This document shows positions 36,894-45,777 of a stretch of 64,000 bases of DNA, one piece after another. The position numbers and the translations under genes are program-made. Position 1 is the first letter of the stretch, and the number at the start of each line of letters is the position of its first letter. Source of the stretch: Stackebrandtia endophytica (GTDB lineage Bacteria > Actinomycetota > Actinomycetes > Mycobacteriales > Micromonosporaceae). The DNA is taken from the NCBI RefSeq assembly GCF_006716355.1, contig NZ_VFOW01000001.1, positions 4,340,001-4,404,000 on the forward strand, in the 5' to 3' direction. The notes below the pieces were generated by a model that was not told the origin of the DNA, made no database searches, and saw only the letters and a program-made list of their open reading frames with translations.

Positions 36894-37697
36894 TCAACGG
36901 ATCCCGTGTCGCCGAAGAGTGGCCGCCAACCGGTGGGTGTGGGACATGAGCGCGTCGGCGACCCGCTGCACCTCCACCTCGGTGGCCAACTGGATGGGCA
37001 TGGAGCAACTGATCGCGTCGGTGGCCGGGATCCGGTATTCCACCGCCACCGCGACACAGGCGACCCCCGAGGTGCCCTGTTCGCGTTCCAGGGACCAGCC
37101 GCGCGAGCGGACCTCGTCCAGTACGGTCCGCAGCTGATCGTGATCGGTGATCGTCGCCGGCGTGAAGCCCTCCAACTCCGTCGGCAACACCTCCGACACC
37201 TCGGCCTCGGTCAACTGGGACAGCAGGGCCTGGCCCAGCCCCGTCAGGTGAGCCGGCAGTCGGCGGCCGACCCGCGAGACGATGCGGACGGAGTCGCGAG
37301 ACTCCCGACTGGCCAGGTAGAACACGTGCGAGGCCTCTCGCCGTGCATAGTGGATTGTGTAGCCGAGTTCGGCGCGCAGATCCTCCAATGTCTCGTAGGC
37401 ATAGGGCAATGCCGGATCGCGATCGAGGTACGCGGTGCCCGACAGAAGCGCGTGTGCGCCCACGCCGAAGGCGGAGCCACTGTCATCGGCCTCGATCCAA
37501 TTGAGATCGCGCAGCGTGCGCACCAGCGCATGCAGGCTCGATCGTGGATATCCGGTGGCCTCCTGTAGTTGCGACAGGGTGAGTCGTCCGGGGGAGGCGG
37601 CGAGCGTCTCCAGGATCCGCACGGTCCGCTCGGCCGACTTCACCGGTTGACCTTCCGGCTCACTGCGGGGCGGGGTACTGCTGCGACGTGCCGCCAT
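36894..37697 (-). CDS. IclR-family transcriptional regulator, 267 aa
   Basis: Winged-helix domain about 18-80 (SAERTVRILETLAASPGRLTLSQLQEATGYPRSSLHALVRTLRD) and a C-terminal effector-binding domain about 95-260, with GxxxPAHLTGLGQALLSQL and GTSGVACVAVAV. Such regulators respond to small acids, and the context suggests a uronate or aldarate intermediate. ATG at 37697 is used, with AAGGAA upstream; a longer frame lacks a family match. It is divergent from the solute-binding protein gene, with palindromes between, and downstream of udh. Confidence 0.88.
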   Translation of the reverse strand: MAARRSSTPPRSEPEGQPVKSAERTVRILETLAASPGRLTLSQLQEATGYPRSSLHALVRTLRDLNWIEADDSGSAFGVGAHALLSGTAYLDRDPALPYAYETLEDLRAELGYTIHYARREASHVFYLASRESRDSVRIVSRVGRRLPAHLTGLGQALLSQLTEAEVSEVLPTELEGFTPATITDHDQLRTVLDEVRSRGWSLEREQGTSGVACVAVAVEYRIPATDAISCSMPIQLATEVEVQRVADALMSHTHRLAATLRRHGIR

Positions 37698-37782
37698 GGC
37701 GATTCTGTTCCTTCGTTTTCTCGATGTTCCTTGTGTCCAACCGATTCTCACGATCGTGACACCGTGACGCAAAGATCCTTGC

Positions 37783-37869
37783 ATACATGTATTGACCGTC
37801 ACTAACCTGAATGTTAACCTCCCGTTGATTATAAGTCACATTGAAGGATGTTGTCTTCATATGTAGACA
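37783..37869. promoter_or_regulatory. Two palindromes upstream of the uronate transport operon
   Basis: ATACATGTAT (perfect palindrome, 37783-37792) and TGTCTTCATATGTAGACA (37852-37869, one mismatched pair, central CATATG). The latter ends 12 nt before the ATG of the solute-binding protein and shares TGTCNNCATATG with the site at 35906. Likely IclR operators. Confidence 0.5.
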
Positions 37870-37881
37870 GGAGATTGCCAT

Positions 37882-39138
37882 ATGATCCGTGGTCGCCCTC
37901 GGGCCCGGTTCGTGACACTTGCTTTGGCGGCGGTTCTGCTGGGCACAACCGCCGCATGCGGAAGCGGCCCCGTTCAGACCGAACAAGACCCCAACGCGGT
38001 ACTGGAGATCTGGGTCCGCAAACCACCCGACAGCGCCAGCGCCGCAACCGCGAAGACCCTGGCCGACGCGTTCACCGAATCCACCGGTATCCCCACCACG
38101 GTGACCGCGATATTCGAAGACTTCGAAACCAAGATCCAACAGGCCGCGGCCCAACAGGATCTGCCCGACATCGTCATCAACGACACCGCCCAATTGGGAA
38201 CCATGGCCGGTCAGGGAATCGTTCGCGAGATCGATCCCGACCAATTGGCCGGAAGTCAGGACCTCACCCCCGGTTCCTGGGACGCCAGCCGCACCGTCGA
38301 CGGCAAGACATACGCCGTTCCCTTCTCTGCGCAGTCGTTCGCGCTGTTCATCCGCAAGGACTGGCGAGAGGCCGTAGGCGCCGACGTCCCCACCAGCTGG
38401 GACGAACTACAGGCGCTGGCCGAGAAGTTCACCACCGAAGACCCCGACGGAAACGGCAGCGACGACACCTACGGGTACGTCGTCCCCGGATCCACCAAAC
38501 GCGGCTACACCTCCTGGTACTACTCCAGTTTCCTGTGGTCGGCCGGTGGCGACTTCCTCACCGAGTCCGGCGACGGCTACACCCCCGTCATCGACAGCGC
38601 CGCCTCGGTCGCCGCGCTGCAATGGTTCCAGGACGCCGCCTGCGACGGGACGATCGTGCCCGACGCGCCCACATTGGAAACCAGCCAGGCGCACCCGCTG
38701 TTCGAAAGTGGAGTCGCCGGGATCTACCTCACCGGTCCCTACATGATGGCCAGGTTCGACGAGAACCTCGGCGCCGACAAGTACGAGATCGTTCCGCTGC
38801 CGGCGGGACCGGGTGGTCAGGCCAGTGTCCTGGCCGAGGGCGAGAACGTCTACCTGATGGCCGGTTCGGCCAACGAGGCCGGACAGCAGAAGTTCGCCGA
38901 GTTCGCGGTATCCGTCGAGGGCCAGACCATCGGAATGGCCGGAGACTCCGACGGCAACATCGTCCGACTGCCGGTCAACAGTCAGGTCGCGATCTCCGAG
39001 GTCCGCCAGGACGAACGCTGGCAGATCTTCGACGAGGTCTACCGGGACTCCAGCCGCTACGTCCCGATCGTTCCGGAGTGGACACCCATTCTGCAGAACT
39101 CCGCCGAGGCGTTCAACACCATCATCGCCGACTGTTGA
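37882..39138 (+). CDS. ABC solute-binding lipoprotein, 418 aa, shortened by an in-frame TGA
   Basis: Family 1 sugar-type extracellular solute-binding protein. Lipobox TTAAC with Cys26 after a short signal; the body is a two-lobe binding fold. The frame ends at TGA 39136-39138 (after IIADC), but the next 26 codons, same frame, encode IDVGTRLGELSDTIAAELEKQG and a final VVGL, a normal C-terminal helix, and end at TGA 39217-39219. That second stop overlaps the permease ATG at 39216 as ATGA, like the next three junctions in the operon. So the first TGA looks like an acquired nonsense codon, a sequence error or a read-through stop. It probably binds a uronate or oligouronate. Confidence 0.88.
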   Translation: MIRGRPRARFVTLALAAVLLGTTAACGSGPVQTEQDPNAVLEIWVRKPPDSASAATAKTLADAFTESTGIPTTVTAIFEDFETKIQQAAAQQDLPDIVINDTAQLGTMAGQGIVREIDPDQLAGSQDLTPGSWDASRTVDGKTYAVPFSAQSFALFIRKDWREAVGADVPTSWDELQALAEKFTTEDPDGNGSDDTYGYVVPGSTKRGYTSWYYSSFLWSAGGDFLTESGDGYTPVIDSAASVAALQWFQDAACDGTIVPDAPTLETSQAHPLFESGVAGIYLTGPYMMARFDENLGADKYEIVPLPAGPGGQASVLAEGENVYLMAGSANEAGQQKFAEFAVSVEGQTIGMAGDSDGNIVRLPVNSQVAISEVRQDERWQIFDEVYRDSSRYVPIVPEWTPILQNSAEAFNTIIADC

Positions 39139-39215
39139 ATCGACGTCGGTACCCGCCTGGGTGAACTGTCCGACACCATCGCCGCCGAACTCGAGAAGCA
39201 AGGAGTCGTCGGCTT

Positions 39216-40190
39216 ATGACAACCACCGGTCAACCGGTGGCGGTGGAACTGGAATCTCCACCGCCACCGGGACCGGCTCAGCCACCACCTCGTCGCAGGT
39301 TCGGTTCGATCCGGTTGCGCGGCACCCTCACCGCCGCCGTGTTTCTCGCACCCGCACTGATCACCTTCCTACTGTTCAAGTTCATCCCGATGGGACGCGC
39401 CATCCAGATGAGCTTCCACGAGGTGCGGCCCTATCTGGGCGACGTCTGGGTCGGTTTCGACAACTACACCCGACTGCTGAGTGAAGCCGAGTTCCTCACC
39501 GCCGTATGGCAGACCGTGATCCTCGCGGTCGGGCAGACCGCCGGCTCCCTCATCGTGGGCATCGTGCTCGCCCTGCTGCTGGAAGGCAGCGCGCGTCACC
39601 TGTGGATCATCCGCACCGCCGTATTCCTGCCGACCGTGGTCGCGCTGGCCGTGGTCGCCGAAGTCTGGCGAGTCCTCTACTACCCGGGCGAAGCCGGCGT
39701 CATCAACAGCCTGATCGGCTGGTTCGGACTGGGCCCGTCGGAGTTCCTCAACTCCAGCGACACATCACTGTGGTCGGTCATGGCGGTGGGCGTGTGGCGT
39801 GGCGCCCCCTACGACATGATGATCATCCTGGCCGGTCTCGCCGGCGTCGACCGCACCCTCTACGAAGCCTCCGCCGTCGACGGCGCGAGCATCCGGCAAC
39901 GCCTGTGGCACGTGACCCTTCCCGCGTTGCGTCCGGTCTTCGCCATCCTGATCACACTGGCCGCCATTCGGGGCCTGCGGGTCTTCACCGAGATCTTCCT
40001 ACTCACCAACGGCGGTCCGAACGGTTCGACCGAGGTCATCATGACCCTCATCTACAAGCTGGGCCTGGAACGCAGCGAGTTGGGCATCGCCGCGGCCGGT
40101 TCGGTCATCCTGCTGCTGGCCACCATCGCGTTGACCCTCGCGGTGCAGATAGCCCGCCGCGGCCGACCCTCCAGAAAGGCCAAGCGATGA
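39216..40190 (+). CDS. ABC sugar permease (MalF-type), 324 aa
   Basis: Inner-membrane permease of the binding-protein-dependent sugar class. After a Pro-rich cytoplasmic start there are six hydrophobic segments from about 35 on. The EAA motif region is YEASAVDGASIRQRLWHVTLPALRPV, with the conserved Gly, which docks on the ATPase. The end runs QIARRGRPSRKAKR. Starts ATG at 39216 and ends ATGA-overlapped with the next permease. No ATPase gene is present, so a shared one such as MsiK elsewhere is expected. Confidence 0.9.
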   Translation: MTTTGQPVAVELESPPPPGPAQPPPRRRFGSIRLRGTLTAAVFLAPALITFLLFKFIPMGRAIQMSFHEVRPYLGDVWVGFDNYTRLLSEAEFLTAVWQTVILAVGQTAGSLIVGIVLALLLEGSARHLWIIRTAVFLPTVVALAVVAEVWRVLYYPGEAGVINSLIGWFGLGPSEFLNSSDTSLWSVMAVGVWRGAPYDMMIILAGLAGVDRTLYEASAVDGASIRQRLWHVTLPALRPVFAILITLAAIRGLRVFTEIFLLTNGGPNGSTEVIMTLIYKLGLERSELGIAAAGSVILLLATIALTLAVQIARRGRPSRKAKR

Positions 40191-41059
40191 GCCGTACCGA
40201 ACGCTTCGACACCGCGTTGGGCTTCACCAGCTCACGCCACCCGGTCACCCGGATCCTGCGGTGGGGCGTCTACGTGGTGTGCATCGTGGTGTTCGCCGGG
40301 CCACTGCTGTCGCTGTTGATCAACGCGTTCACCCCGGTGTCCAACCCGACCAGCCTCACCCTGATACCCGACACCGTCACCTTCGACAACTTCACCCGTG
40401 CGTTCGACCGCGGAGTGCTGGGCTACCTGCTCAACTCGTTCTTCGTGGTGGGATTCGGTCTGCTGGCGCAGATCCTGGTCAGCCTGTCGGCCGCGTATGC
40501 CTTGGCGCGCAAGAAGTTCCCGGGCATGCGACTGGTGCTGCTGCTGATCCTGTCCACCATGATGCTGCCGGAGGAGATTCTGGCGATTCCACTGTCCCTG
40601 GTGCTGGCCGACGTGCCGTTCATCGGGGTCAACCTGATCGGTTCGCTGTTCGGAATGATCATTCCGGTGGCGGCCTGGGGATTCTCCATCCTGGTCATGA
40701 CGGAGTTCATGAAGGAGATCCCCGTCGAACTCGAAGAGGCGGCACGCATCGACGGAGCCGGCGAGTTCCGCATCTTCATCTCGGTGATCCTGCCGTTGTG
40801 CCGCCCAGCGTTGGGCGTCATCGGAATCTTCGGGTTCGTGATGATCTGGGACCAATACATGCTGCCGTTGCTGGTCGCCACCGACACCGCTCAATACACC
40901 CTCCCGCTGGCGTTGCGCACCCTGCGCTCCGACCCGCAGGTCGGGCTGGGCGTGTTGCTGGCCGCCGCACTGTTGGCGCTGCTGCCCTCGGTGATCGCGT
41001 TCCTCGCGATGCAACGACAGTTCATGAAGGGACTGACCTCGGGCGCGGTCAAAGGCTGA
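40187..41059 (+). CDS. ABC sugar permease (MalG-type), 290 aa
   Basis: Second permease of the pair, six membrane helices, EAA motif EEAARIDGAGEFRIFISVILPLCRP near residues 180-205. The MalG-type ending QRQFMKGLTSGAVKG is typical of actinobacterial family 1 permeases. The start overlaps the previous stop (ATGA at 40187). Together with the lipoprotein and the MalF-type partner it makes the likely uronate importer. Confidence 0.9.
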   Translation: MSRTERFDTALGFTSSRHPVTRILRWGVYVVCIVVFAGPLLSLLINAFTPVSNPTSLTLIPDTVTFDNFTRAFDRGVLGYLLNSFFVVGFGLLAQILVSLSAAYALARKKFPGMRLVLLLILSTMMLPEEILAIPLSLVLADVPFIGVNLIGSLFGMIIPVAAWGFSILVMTEFMKEIPVELEEAARIDGAGEFRIFISVILPLCRPALGVIGIFGFVMIWDQYMLPLLVATDTAQYTLPLALRTLRSDPQVGLGVLLAAALLALLPSVIAFLAMQRQFMKGLTSGAVKG

Positions 41060-41097
41060 CCCGTCCATCAACAATGCCGACCCATGTGGAGAAATCT

Positions 41098-42033
41098 GTG
41101 AGACCAAAAGGCTTGCTGTCCTTCCCCCTGACTCCGTTCGGAGCCGACGACGAGGTCGACCTCGACGTGTACACCAGTCACCTGGAGATCCAGTTGGCCG
41201 CCGACCCGGCGGGGGTGTTCGTCGCCTGCGGAACCGGTGAGTTCACCGCACTGTCCGAGGTGGAGTTCCGAAAGGTCGTCACCCGCGCCGTCGAGGTCGC
41301 CGGTGGTCGTGTCCCGGTGGTCGCCGGTGCCGGTGGTGGTCCCCGGTCGGCCCGAGCCTCGGCCGAGGTCGCCGCCGACTGCGGCGCCGACGGGGTCCTG
41401 CTGCTGCCGCCGTACCTGGTGACGGCCCCGCCGTCGGGGGTGTTGCGGCACGTGGCCTACGTCGCCGCCACCAGCCGGTTGCCGATCACGGTCTACCAGC
41501 GTGCCAACGCCATCCTCGACCCGGCCGCGGCCATCGGCCTGCTCGACCTCGACAACGTCGTCGGCATCAAGGACGGCATCGGCGACGTCGAGGCGATGCT
41601 GCGGGTCGTGACCGCGGTGCGCACCAGCGGTCACCGACGCGCCGAGGAGTTCGAGTTCCTCAATGGACTGCCTACTGCGGAGCTGTCGGCGCAGGCATAC
41701 CGGGCCATCGGGATTCCCCGGTACTCCTCAGCGGTCCTGTGCTTCGCACCTGACATCGCCACCGCGTTCTACCGCGCGCACGACAGTGGCGACGACGCGA
41801 CGGTGGCGACATTGCTCAAGACGTTCTACCTGCCGTTCGCCGAACTTCGCTCCCAGGTGCCCGGATATGCGGTGTCACTGGTGAAGGCTGGAGCCCGCAT
41901 GTCGGGACTGGCCATGGGCTCGGTGCGTCCGCCACTGGTGGAGGCCGCCGACGAGCACGTCGAACAGCTGAGTCGGATCCTCGCCGAGACCCGTGAGGCC
42001 CTCGCCGCCGTGCCCGAGGCGGTGGCCGGATGA
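41098..42033 (+). CDS. kdgD: 5-dehydro-4-deoxyglucarate dehydratase, 311 aa
   Basis: Converts 5-dehydro-4-deoxy-D-glucarate to 2,5-dioxopentanoate with loss of CO2 and water. TIM-barrel of the DHDPS/NAL family: GTGEF at 45-49, Tyr133 (TVYQRAN) and Schiff-base Lys158 (VVGIKDG). The opening RPKGLLSFPLTPF is characteristic of this enzyme. GTG at 41098 has GGAG about 6 nt upstream; an ATG 24 nt earlier has no ribosome site. Stop overlaps the next gene (ATGA at 42030). Confidence 0.92.
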   Translation: MRPKGLLSFPLTPFGADDEVDLDVYTSHLEIQLAADPAGVFVACGTGEFTALSEVEFRKVVTRAVEVAGGRVPVVAGAGGGPRSARASAEVAADCGADGVLLLPPYLVTAPPSGVLRHVAYVAATSRLPITVYQRANAILDPAAAIGLLDLDNVVGIKDGIGDVEAMLRVVTAVRTSGHRRAEEFEFLNGLPTAELSAQAYRAIGIPRYSSAVLCFAPDIATAFYRAHDSGDDATVATLLKTFYLPFAELRSQVPGYAVSLVKAGARMSGLAMGSVRPPLVEAADEHVEQLSRILAETREALAAVPEAVAG

Positions 42034-43292
42034 GTCTGCTCATCACCCAGGTCACGGTCACACCGATCGCGTTTCCCGACCCGCCGCTGCTGAACGTCGC
42101 CGGAGTCCATCAGCCGTGGGCACTGCGAACCATCGTGGAGGTACGGACCGACGCGGGCGTCGTCGGCATCGGGGAGTCCTATGGCGACCAACCGCACCTC
42201 GACCTGATGAACCGGGCCGCCGCCGGACTGGTCGGGCTGGATGCCTTCGACCTCAACGGTTTGCGGGCCCGCGTCGCCGAGGCCGTCGGCGCCGAGGACA
42301 CCCCCGCCGGAACCGGGCTGATCGGCGCCTCCAGCAACCAGAAGACCATCGCCCGAGTGGTGTCGCCCTTCGAGGTCGCCTGCCTGGACGCCCAGGGTCT
42401 CGCCCTGGAACGGCCCGTCAGCGACCTGTTGGGCGGGCGAGTCCGCGACCGGGTGTCGTTCTCGGCCTACCTGTTCTACAAGTGGGCCGCACACCCCGGC
42501 GCCGAACCGGACGAGTGGGGGCCGGCGCTGGACCCCGCCGGGATCGTCGCGCAGGCACGCCAGATGATCGACGCCTACGGATTCGAGTCGATCAAGCTCA
42601 AGGGCGGCGTATTCGAACCCGACGCCGAGATCGCCGCGATCCGGGCGCTGCGCGAAGAGTTCGGCGACCACCCGCTGCGACTGGACCCCAACTGCGGTTG
42701 GACCCCGGCCACCTCGATTCGGGTGGCCGAGGAAACCACCGGTCTACTGGAGTACCTGGAGGATCCGACCCCCGGCATCGACGGAATGTCCGAAGTGGCG
42801 CAATCGGCGTCGATGCCGTTGGCCACCAACATGTGTGTGGTCGCGTTCGACCACATCGCCGAGGCCGTGGCCAAACGGGCCGTCGGTGTCATCCTGTCCG
42901 ACCACCACTACTGGGGTGGGCTGCGGGCGTCGGCGGAGTTGGCGGCCATCTGCCGCACCTTCGGCATCGGACTGTCCATGCACTCCAACACCCACCTGGG
43001 AATCAGCCTGGCGGCCATGACCCACCTCGCCGCCGCCACCCCCAACCTGGAGTACGCCCTGGACACCCACACCCCCTGGCAGGGCGGCGTCGACGTGGTC
43101 ACCGATCCGTTGACGTTCCGCAACGGGGCGCTCGACGTCCCGACAACGCCGGGACTCGGCGTCACCCTCGACCGCGACGGGTTGGAACGCATGCACCGCG
43201 ACTATCTCGACTGCGGCATCCGCTCCCGAGACGACACCGGCTACATGCGACAGTTCGAGCCCGGCTTCACGAGGAGGACCGCGTCATGGTGA
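42030..43292 (+). CDS. gudD: Glucarate dehydratase-type enolase-superfamily enzyme, 420 aa
   Basis: Dehydrates D-glucarate (or galactarate/idarate) to 5-dehydro-4-deoxyglucarate. Enolase-superfamily signatures: Lys189/Lys191 in SIKLKGG, metal ligands Asp219 (LRLDPNCGW), Glu244 (YLEDP) and Asn267, Asp291, and His318 in MHSNTHLGISLAAMTH. The close of the sequence TPWQGG matches the glucarate dehydratase branch. Slightly overlaps its neighbours on both sides (4 nt and 7 nt), so translation is coupled. It supplies kdgD. Confidence 0.9.
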   Translation: MSLLITQVTVTPIAFPDPPLLNVAGVHQPWALRTIVEVRTDAGVVGIGESYGDQPHLDLMNRAAAGLVGLDAFDLNGLRARVAEAVGAEDTPAGTGLIGASSNQKTIARVVSPFEVACLDAQGLALERPVSDLLGGRVRDRVSFSAYLFYKWAAHPGAEPDEWGPALDPAGIVAQARQMIDAYGFESIKLKGGVFEPDAEIAAIRALREEFGDHPLRLDPNCGWTPATSIRVAEETTGLLEYLEDPTPGIDGMSEVAQSASMPLATNMCVVAFDHIAEAVAKRAVGVILSDHHYWGGLRASAELAAICRTFGIGLSMHSNTHLGISLAAMTHLAAATPNLEYALDTHTPWQGGVDVVTDPLTFRNGALDVPTTPGLGVTLDRDGLERMHRDYLDCGIRSRDDTGYMRQFEPGFTRRTASW

Positions 43293-44419
43293 CCTTCGCC
43301 GGACACGCCTACCCCTGGGACGTCCTCGGGGACCCCGGGTTCGTCGACCGGGTCGGCGACCTTGGACTGGACTCGGTGACCGTGGCCGCCAGCTACCACA
43401 GCGCCCGGGCCGCGACCCCGCTCCACCCGCGCCGTCAACTGGTCGACGCACGCCACGCCGCTCTCTACCGGCCGGTGCGCGCGCAGGCCTGGGCCGGGCA
43501 ACTGCTGACACCGGGCGTCCCCACCTGGCTGGACACCACCGACGGATTCGGCGAATCGGCACGAGTGCTGTCGGACGCCGGAATCCCGGTCAACGCCTGG
43601 ATCGTGCTCACCCACAGCACCCGACTGGGCGAAGCACATCCGCAGGTCGCGGTACGCAACTGCTTCGGAGAGAGCTACCCCTACGCGCTGTGCCCCTCCC
43701 ACGAGGCGGTCCGGCAATACGCGGCGACGCTGGCCTCCGAAGCCGTCCACGACACCCCGGTGGCCTCGGTCTCCCTGGAGGCGTGCGGGCAACTCGGGCT
43801 GACCCACCTGGGACACCACGAGAAGACCGACGGCGCCTGGACACCGCAGGCGACGCGGTGGCTGTCGGTGTGCTGCTGCACCGGATGTCAGGCGGGTTGG
43901 CGTGATCGAGGACTCGACCCCGACGCGGTCACCGCGACCCTGCGCGCCGCGGTCCGGGCCGAAGCCGTCGGAGAATCGGCGCCCCCGTCGGACGAACTGG
44001 CCACGGCACTGCTGGCCAACCGGCACGCCGCGACCGACCGGCTGCGCGGCGAGGTCCTGGCCGCGGTGAGGACCGCCGCGCCCACCGCCTCGGTCACCCT
44101 GCACGCCAACCCCGACCCGTGGGCCACCGGACCGTCGGTCGGTATCACCGACCGCACCGCCGCCGAGGTCGACGCGATCCTGGTCCCGGCCTGGCCGACG
44201 ACCGGGGAGAGTGCGGATACTGTGGCCAAGGCAGCCGAACATGGACGGCCGGTCGACGCCTACGTCACCGTGCTTCCACCCACTCGGCACGACGCCATCG
44301 CCGGGCACATTCGCGGACTCGTGGAGGCCGGCGCCACCCGGTTCAGCCTGTACCACCTGGGATTGGCGCCCGCCTGGCGACAAAACTGGTTCAGTGAGTT
44401 GAGGGAGGCCCTTGTATGA
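43286..44419 (+). CDS. Uncharacterised TIM-barrel-like protein of the uronate operon, 377 aa
   Basis: No known family could be named with confidence. It has no signal peptide. Notable parts are the opening FAGHAYPWDVLGDP, EACGQLGLTHLGHHEKTDG and LSVCCCTGCQ (four Cys, CCC-x2-C), LHANPDPW and TAYVTV-like strands, ending YHLGLAPAWRQNWFSELREALV. The alternating strands and helices and the Glu/Asp ends suggest a TIM barrel of glycosidase-like or isomerase-like type. GAGGAGG precedes the ATG at 43286; 7-nt overlap upstream and ATGA downstream tie it tightly to the pathway. It could process an intermediate such as the aldaro-lactone. Confidence 0.6.
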   Translation: MVTFAGHAYPWDVLGDPGFVDRVGDLGLDSVTVAASYHSARAATPLHPRRQLVDARHAALYRPVRAQAWAGQLLTPGVPTWLDTTDGFGESARVLSDAGIPVNAWIVLTHSTRLGEAHPQVAVRNCFGESYPYALCPSHEAVRQYAATLASEAVHDTPVASVSLEACGQLGLTHLGHHEKTDGAWTPQATRWLSVCCCTGCQAGWRDRGLDPDAVTATLRAAVRAEAVGESAPPSDELATALLANRHAATDRLRGEVLAAVRTAAPTASVTLHANPDPWATGPSVGITDRTAAEVDAILVPAWPTTGESADTVAKAAEHGRPVDAYVTVLPPTRHDAIAGHIRGLVEAGATRFSLYHLGLAPAWRQNWFSELREALV

Positions 44420-45777
44420 CCGACGCGAACATCGCCGACGCCACCGGAAAAGCCGCCAGGGCGGCAGCCGGGTTCGCCGCGCTGTCGGCGACGGCACGAC
44501 GTGATCTGTTGCACGCATGTGGCGACGCACTGGACGCCGCCGGAGACGAACTCGTCGCGCTGGTGGGTGAGGAGACCGGACTGACCGAACCCCGGTTGCG
44601 CGGCGAACTCGCCCGCACCAGCGGACAACTGCGCCTGCTGGGGGACTACGTCGCCGACGGCCGTCACCTTCCCGGCGTGACCTCACCCGACGCCGCCCCC
44701 GGTGGCGGCGACATCGTGATGGCGTCGGTGGCGGTCGGCCCGGTCGCGGTGTTCGCCGCCTCCAACTTCCCGTTGGCCTTCGGCGTCGCCGGTGGCGACA
44801 CCGCCTCGGCGCTGGCGGCGGGTTGCCCGGTGGTCGCCAAGGCCCACCCGGCGCAACCCCGGACCTCCCGCAGGATCGCGGAGTTGCTGAGCGCGCAGCT
44901 GCCCGAAGGGGTCTTCAGCCTCGTCGAAGGTGGTGCCGAGACCTCCATCGCGTTGGTGACCGATCCGCTGATCCGGGCGGTGGGCTTCACCGGTTCGCTG
45001 GGAGGTGGGCGGGCCCTCATGGACGCCGCCGCGTCTCGGCCGGATCCGATCCCGGTATACGCCGAGATGGGGTCGCTGAACCCGGTGTTCGTGCTGCCCG
45101 AGGCTGCCGCCGACACCGCCTGGGCGACCAGTCTGGCCGGTGCGGTGACCGGTTCGGCGGGACAGTTGTGCACCAAGCCCGGCCTGATCGTGCTGCCGGA
45201 CACCCCGGCAGGGGAGTCCCTGTCGCGGGAACTGGTCGCGGCGATTACCGCGACCAAGGCGCAGCACCCGATGCTGACCGCCGGTATGGCTCAGGCGCAT
45301 GAGGAGTGGTTGAGTCGCGCCGAAGGCCGCGAGGAGGTGTCGGTTCACGCCGCCGACGCCGGTGACGGAGCGCGCGCCTTCGTCGTGGAGGTGTCGAAGG
45401 AGCAACTCGCCGACGAACTGCTGACCGAACACTTCGGACCAACCACTGTGGTCTGCCGAGTTCCGGTCGAGGAGTATCCGGCGATCGCCGCCCGCTTGGA
45501 GGGGAGCCTGACCGCGACGCTGTTGGGTACCGACGCCGATCACGAGGTGGCGGCGACACTACTGCCGACCCTGGGCGACACCGCCGGCCGGATCATCTGG
45601 AACGGGGTGCCGACCGGGGTCGCCGTCTGCGACGCCATGCTCCATGGTGGACCTTGGCCGGCGACCTCGGCGCCGTGGTCGACCTCGGTGGGAACCGCTG
45701 CGGTGGCACGATTCCGCCGCCCGGTCGCGCTGCAGGGCCTGCCGGAGGCGCTGATCGGTCGGGTGGCCCCCGCCTAA
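44416..45777 (+). CDS. 2,5-dioxovalerate (alpha-ketoglutarate semialdehyde) dehydrogenase, 453 aa
   Basis: Aldehyde dehydrogenase that oxidises 2,5-dioxopentanoate to 2-oxoglutarate, last step of the uronate route into the TCA cycle. Catalytic Cys252 (GSAGQLCTKPG), Glu217 (AEMGS), Asn117 (ASNFPLAF) and Lys142 (AKAHPAQ). The AKAHPAQPRTS and FTGSLGGGRAL blocks are typical of the ketoglutarate-semialdehyde class. It starts ATGA-overlapped with the previous gene and closes the operon; a hairpin follows 101 nt later. Confidence 0.9.
   Translation: MTDANIADATGKAARAAAGFAALSATARRDLLHACGDALDAAGDELVALVGEETGLTEPRLRGELARTSGQLRLLGDYVADGRHLPGVTSPDAAPGGGDIVMASVAVGPVAVFAASNFPLAFGVAGGDTASALAAGCPVVAKAHPAQPRTSRRIAELLSAQLPEGVFSLVEGGAETSIALVTDPLIRAVGFTGSLGGGRALMDAAASRPDPIPVYAEMGSLNPVFVLPEAAADTAWATSLAGAVTGSAGQLCTKPGLIVLPDTPAGESLSRELVAAITATKAQHPMLTAGMAQAHEEWLSRAEGREEVSVHAADAGDGARAFVVEVSKEQLADELLTEHFGPTTVVCRVPVEEYPAIAARLEGSLTATLLGTDADHEVAATLLPTLGDTAGRIIWNGVPTGVAVCDAMLHGGPWPATSAPWSTSVGTAAVARFRRPVALQGLPEALIGRVAPA

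What the first reader, a model, noticed from the sequence alone, without database searches (positions are those of the whole stretch)
39120..39219. In-frame TGA splits the end of the solute-binding protein gene
TGA at 39136-39138 stops the lipoprotein after IIADC. The same frame then stays open for 26 codons that look like the family's normal C-terminal amphipathic helix (GELSDTIAAELEKQG) and ends at TGA 39217-39219. That stop overlaps the permease ATG as ATGA, the same junction used at 40187, 42030 and 44416. The overlap and the coding character indicate that the gene originally ended there. Options are a recent nonsense change, a sequencing error, or programmed read-through.
Basis: partly seen in the sequence, partly recalled or inferred. 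Interest (0 to 1): 0.72.

Follow-up and report, generated by a model that had tools for sequence, protein, structure and literature searches.

The report
Sugar-binding protein gene truncated by TGA
An actinobacterium carries an early stop codon that trims the last helix from a sugar-uptake lipoprotein which nearly all compared relatives keep whole; it looks like an ordinary recent nonsense change rather than programmed read-through.

Summary
The solute-binding lipoprotein gene (37882-39138) ends at TGA 39136-39138, and its frame stays open for 26 more codons to TGA 39217-39219, overlapping the permease ATG. Those codons are the remnant of a conserved C-terminal segment. All 87 other ortholog rows (83 genomes after removing duplicates) keep the same Cys and have a sense codon next. 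86 of the 87 then run 24-27 residues to their stop; the other is a frameshifted draft. In the closest ortholog this segment is a confidently predicted helix, residues 422-439.

The ancestral stop was therefore probably at 39214-39216, one codon earlier.

A recent nonsense mutation fits best. Sequencing error and passive UGA leakage are the main rivals; neither reads nor a second isolate could be checked. The genome has a selenocysteine system, but no relative row has Cys at this codon, and 335 of 1002 random gene positions have as good a hairpin. tRNA-Trp has an ordinary anticodon stem. Interest is low.

The parts
37882..39138 (+). Extracellular solute-binding lipoprotein gene (SBP_bac_1), 418 aa as it stands, probable lipobox Cys26 (label recalled)
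   Evidence: ortholog alignment
39133..39135 (+). Codon TGT for Cys418, present in 88 of 88 aligned rows (own included)
39136..39138 (+). In-frame TGA where 87 of 87 other rows have a sense codon (60 of 87 Gly or Ser)
39139..39213 (+). Remnant of the conserved C-terminal helical segment (25 codons); keeps the two Leu and the Gln that are invariant in 81 other tails
   Evidence: helix 422-439 in the model of the ortholog
39200..39205 (+). AAGGAG, Shine-Dalgarno-like motif of the permease, inside the tail (Gln-Gly codons)
   Evidence: duplex -7.8 kcal/mol with an assumed anti-SD sequence; 7 relatives -5.3 to -10.7
39214..39216 (+). TTA at the place of the probable ancestral stop (TGA in the TGATGA of the closest relative and three others)
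39217..39219 (+). Second in-frame TGA, overlaps the permease ATG as ATGA
39216..40190 (+). ABC permease 1 (BPD_transp_1), open frame
40187..41059 (+). ABC permease 2, open frame
41077..42033 (+). 5-dehydro-4-deoxyglucarate dehydratase family, above the cut-off of NF002958 (start approximate)
42030..43292 (+). Enolase-superfamily dehydratase, nearest model glucarate dehydratase (below that model's cut-off)
44416..45777 (+). Aldehyde dehydrogenase family
36894..37802 (-). IclR-type regulator, divergent from the transporter genes

Best explanation
A recent nonsense change (a Gly or Ser codon to TGA) in this lineage cuts the solute-binding lipoprotein after Cys418. About 26 residues, the last helix of the fold, are missing from nearly all product. 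The permease is probably still translated from its own Shine-Dalgarno-like site, which lies inside the now untranslated tail. The lipoprotein is expected to be a weakened or dead version of the uptake receptor of a hexuronate/aldarate cluster. Because UGA followed by A is described as a leaky context, a small full-length share is possible but need not be regulated. Shown: the stop, the tail in relatives, the helix in the ortholog's model, the motif before the permease. Inferred: loss of function, permease translation, the substrate and the order of events.
For: All 87 other ortholog rows (83 genomes) read on through this position, 86 of them for 24-27 residues. The model of the 82%-identical ortholog has a last helix at 422-439 with block-mean pLDDT 96-98, and all 50 solved chains listed have their last aligned residue at 437 or beyond (a range gives ends only). 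The tail still looks like family tail (15 of 25 identical to the closest relative; the invariant Leu, Leu and Gln kept), so the stop is probably young. The ancestral stop at 39214 has also been lost, to TTA, a codon seen 7 times in 47,222 training codons. GGA is 17% of Gly codons here, so GGC to GGA to TGA is a possible route. The own tail is somewhat more diverged than other pairs of like body distance.
Against: No reads or second isolate could be checked, so error is open. The extra divergence of the tail is modest: identity to the closest relative 0.60 against a mean of 0.72 (sd 0.09, minimum 0.54) for 149 other pairs in the same band; in the relative-rate test 7 of 71 body windows are as low. 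That would also fit a tail still being translated. Part of the tail may be held by the permease's ribosome-binding motif, so its persistence says less. TTA is rare but 19 of 334 called genes contain one, so it is weak evidence. The packing of the helix was not measured, and the window protein itself was not folded.
Confidence: 0.66

Rival explanations
1. Sequencing or assembly error: the true codon is a sense codon and the gene is intact.
For: The rest of the gene is open and looks constrained (body pN 0.118, pS 0.400 against the closest relative) and the operon frames are open; a single wrong base would suffice if the true codon is one step from TGA.
Against: The assembly is one contig, 99.98% complete, and the body aligns to the closest relative without a gap. 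Only 1 of the 87 other rows has a codon one base from TGA (TCA; no GGA), and the closest relative has GGC, two bases away; this limits the error and the mutation route alike. The TTA at the old stop is a second derived change in the same gene end.
Confidence: 0.14
2. Leaky UGA decoding by tRNA-Trp gives a small, useful amount of the full-length receptor, tolerated rather than programmed.
For: UGA followed by A is described as prone to tRNA-Trp misreading in E. coli (PMC5289835, passages). The tail keeps its invariant residues. In-frame stops in genes under purifying selection are reported as widespread in bacteria (PMC7918605: abstract, section 2.1, first part of the discussion).
Against: tRNA-Trp has an ordinary 5-bp anticodon stem and, compared with the E. 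coli sequence as recalled, no change in the D stem. UGA-A itself is not special here: 30 of 217 TGA stops in the sample, own included, are followed by A. The final codon has become TTA. No expression data.
Confidence: 0.16
3. Programmed recoding, for example selenocysteine at this UGA giving a Cys-Sec pair.
For: The genome has tRNA-Sec (tca), SelA, SelB and an AIRS-domain protein, probably SelD. A hairpin with G first in its loop has its loop 16 nt after the UGA.
Against: 335 of 1002 random gene positions and 92 of 217 TGA stops in this genome have as good a hairpin under the same (recalled) rules. The 61-nt fold is no more stable than shuffles, z +0.75. The closest ortholog has no hairpin by these rules. 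0 of 87 other rows have Cys or Trp here.
Confidence: 0.03

Closest known systems
Family 1 extracellular solute-binding proteins of sugar ABC importers (PF01547; e.g. 6dtr MalE3, 3k01 GacH, 5ysb)
   Different: The window copy stops before the final helix; all 50 listed solved chains have aligned residues up to 437 or beyond of the ortholog's model.
In-frame nonsense codons in otherwise conserved bacterial genes (Belinky et al. 2021, PMC7918605)
   Same: One stop in an otherwise constrained gene, relatives with sense, apparently young.
   Different: Here it falls at the very end of the gene and is seen in one genome only; that study focused on stops shared by two or more species.
Selenocysteine UGA recoding
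   Same: UGA in frame in a genome with the Sec machinery.
   Different: No hairpin beyond background and no Cys counterpart in the relatives compared.

Membership tests
Extracellular solute-binding protein family 1 | Pfam SBP_bac_1 match above cut-off | tested here: met
   117.4 bits against cut-off 26
Extracellular solute-binding protein family 1 (completeness, not part of the Pfam definition) | Terminal helix of the fold encoded before the first stop | tested here: not met
   Helix 422-439 of the ortholog aligns beyond the stop in the window; the window protein itself was not folded. Family membership rests on the Pfam match, residues 51-348
Nonsense-truncated gene | Orthologs continue past the stop with similar sequence | tested here: met
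   87 of 87 other rows continue in sense, 86 with a tail of 24-27 residues
Nonsense-truncated gene | Stop confirmed in reads or a second isolate | not testable with these tools
   Collections hold one genome per species; no reads
Nonsense-truncated gene | Relaxed evolution after the stop | tested here: inconclusive
   Tail somewhat more diverged than expected, within the spread of controls
Selenoprotein | Sec machinery in the genome | tested here: met
   tRNA-Sec, SelA, SelB and an AIRS-domain protein, probably SelD
Selenoprotein | SECIS-like hairpin better than background | tested here: not met
   335 of 1002 random positions as good or better (geometry rules recalled)
Selenoprotein | Cys at the position in homologs | tested here: not met
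   Gly, Ser, Ala, Asp, Lys, Glu or Thr; 0 of 87 Cys
UGA read-through by altered tRNA-Trp | 4-bp anticodon stem | tested here: not met
   5-bp stem GCGGT/ACCGC in the one tRNA-Trp found; feature taken from the abstract of PMC13092985

The most novel reading that the evidence does not exclude
The UGA is decoded at a useful, perhaps regulated rate, so that the cell makes a short and a long form of the sugar receptor from one gene.
Probability: 0.05. Interest if true: 0.55.

Novelty: new member of a known kind. Interest (0 to 1): 0.17.

Why it matters
As a nonsense change it shows one uptake receptor of a probable aldarate/uronate cluster being lost or weakened while the other frames of the operon stay open. 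It is also a warning for annotation, since the ATGA overlap looks ancestral but probably arose from a lost TGATGA junction. If the long form proved to be made, it would be a natural test of UGA leakage in a high-GC actinobacterium.

Tried and rejected
Selenocysteine: machinery found, but hairpin and homologs speak against it. I looked for a Sec formate dehydrogenase as a positive control. Of 6 matches to TIGR01553 none is over the cut-off, and by eye none of the 4 molybdopterin-domain genes showed coding across an upstream TGA. No positive control for a Sec gene was therefore had. The UGSC family search rang nowhere, not even in its 14 controls, so it says nothing. Rfam over 38900-39500 gave no match up to E 1. 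Altered tRNA-Trp: not seen. Relaxed selection on the tail: weak. The single-sequence fold was useless, mean pLDDT 36; only the alignment-based fold was used. Paper searches on read-through, premature stops and truncated binding proteins and on the genus gave the papers cited; no claim is made that this case is unpublished.

Full report
Observation. The gene at 37882-39138 encodes a 418-residue solute-binding lipoprotein (SBP_bac_1). It stops at TGA 39136-39138 after ...IIADC. The frame continues for 26 codons and stops at TGA 39217-39219, which overlaps the permease ATG as ATGA; the same overlap is present at 40187, 42030 and 44416.

Is it more than chance? I took 20 stretches of 20 kb spread over the same genome (one of them moved to take in the tRNA-Sec locus) plus the window, 464 kb in all. 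I trained codon log-odds on the long ORFs and scored the same-frame extension of 330 called genes. 208 extensions, this one included, reach 26 codons. Only this one reaches 0.476 per codon; the next best in the printed list is 0.41, and the high-scoring long ones seem to contain a downstream gene in the same frame (the last point is by length, not checked one by one).

Relatives. A search of 61 genomes (52 with some match at E 0.001 or less, nearly all of them distant relatives) and a scan of genome contigs (110 relatives found, the best 80 kept) gave 87 other rows. I used the 7 loci with 40% identity or more and all 80. One further 53% match in G020 had no locus and was not examined. Four rows are contigs met twice (L002/L040, L003/L047, L005/L053, L006/L049, by equal contig length), leaving 83 genomes. 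All 88 rows, own included, have the Cys at 418. 0 of the 87 others have a stop at the next codon. Tails are 24-27 residues in 86 of 87; L095, a draft, is frameshifted to 92. L007 is split by a frameshift further upstream and was counted. The closest relative is Stackebrandtia albiflava (82% identity; same genus in the tool's kinship table).

Where was the original stop? S. albiflava ends ...GGC TGA TGA; L041, L043 and L004 also show TGATGA, the other rows do not. The window has GGC TTA TGA. The likely history is that the stop at 39214-39216 was lost to TTA, and the next TGA, already there as part of the permease ATGA, now closes the frame. TTA is rare here, 7 of 47,222 training codons, although 19 of 334 called genes contain one.

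State of the tail. Against S. albiflava, 15 of 25 tail residues are identical (pN 0.264, pS 0.525) versus 82% of the body (pN 0.118, pS 0.400); 10 of 368 body windows of 25 codons are as divergent. The tail is normally less conserved than the body. At like body identity (0.82-0.86) 149 other pairs have a mean tail identity of 0.72 (sd 0.09, minimum 0.54), and this pair has 0.60. In the 0.63-0.68 band the 21 own pairs have 0.28-0.44, all below the mean of 0.46 (sd 0.07) of 264 other pairs; these pairs share the own sequence and are not independent (L007, L095 and the four duplicates dropped). A relative-rate comparison with 80 outgroups puts the own tail 0.030 below the S. albiflava tail, with 7 of 71 body windows as low. 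The two columns that are all Leu and the one that is all Gln in the 81 others are kept. So the stop is young compared with the species split, or the tail is still of use; these data do not separate the two. The Gln-Gly codons also form an AAGGAG motif before the permease (39200-39205), which by itself could hold that part.

What the tail does. A model of the S. albiflava protein from an alignment of 26 sequences (mean pLDDT 90.7) has a last helix at 422-439, block-mean pLDDT 96-98. All 50 solved chains listed have their last aligned residue at 437 or beyond. The window protein stops before that helix. How the helix packs was not measured, and loss of stability or function is an inference.

Decoding alternatives. 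The genome has tRNA-Sec with anticodon tca, SelA, SelB and an AIRS-domain protein beside the tRNA that is probably SelD. A hairpin with an admissible geometry (rules recalled) follows the UGA at -5.2 kcal/mol, but 335 of 1002 random gene positions and 92 of 217 TGA stops do as well. The local fold is no better than shuffles, and no relative row has Cys there. The one tRNA-Trp found has a 5-bp anticodon stem. UGA is followed by A, as at 30 of 217 TGA stops in the sample, own included, a context described as prone to tRNA-Trp misreading in E. coli (PMC5289835, passages read). Belinky et al. (PMC7918605; abstract, section 2.1 and the first part of the discussion) report that in-frame stops in bacterial genes are common and mostly short-lived; carbohydrate transport and metabolism is a frequent category by count, though only the mobilome is over-represented.

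Context. The operon holds two permeases, a 5-dehydro-4-deoxyglucarate dehydratase, an enolase-superfamily dehydratase and an aldehyde dehydrogenase, with an IclR regulator and an NAD-dependent epimerase/dehydrogenase beside it. This suggests uptake and oxidation of hexuronates or aldarates, an inference from the families.

Verdict. The best reading is a recent nonsense truncation (0.66); leaky decoding (0.16), error (0.14) and programmed recoding (0.03) are rivals. A new example of a known kind, of low interest.

Noticed in passing
G000:C1:4282578-4290218 (in L140): Selenocysteine system (tRNA-Sec tca, SelA, SelB, an AIRS-domain protein that is probably SelD), yet no selenocysteine-type formate dehydrogenase over the cut-off; the selenoprotein it serves was not found.
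   Followed up: partly
window 43292-44416: A 375-aa reading frame inside the aldarate operon, between the dehydratase and the aldehyde dehydrogenase, without an NCBIfam match at E 0.001 (not tried in Pfam).
   Followed up: no
L095 and L007: Two other genomes carry frameshifts in the same binding-protein gene (L095 in the tail, L007 near residue 320).
   Followed up: no
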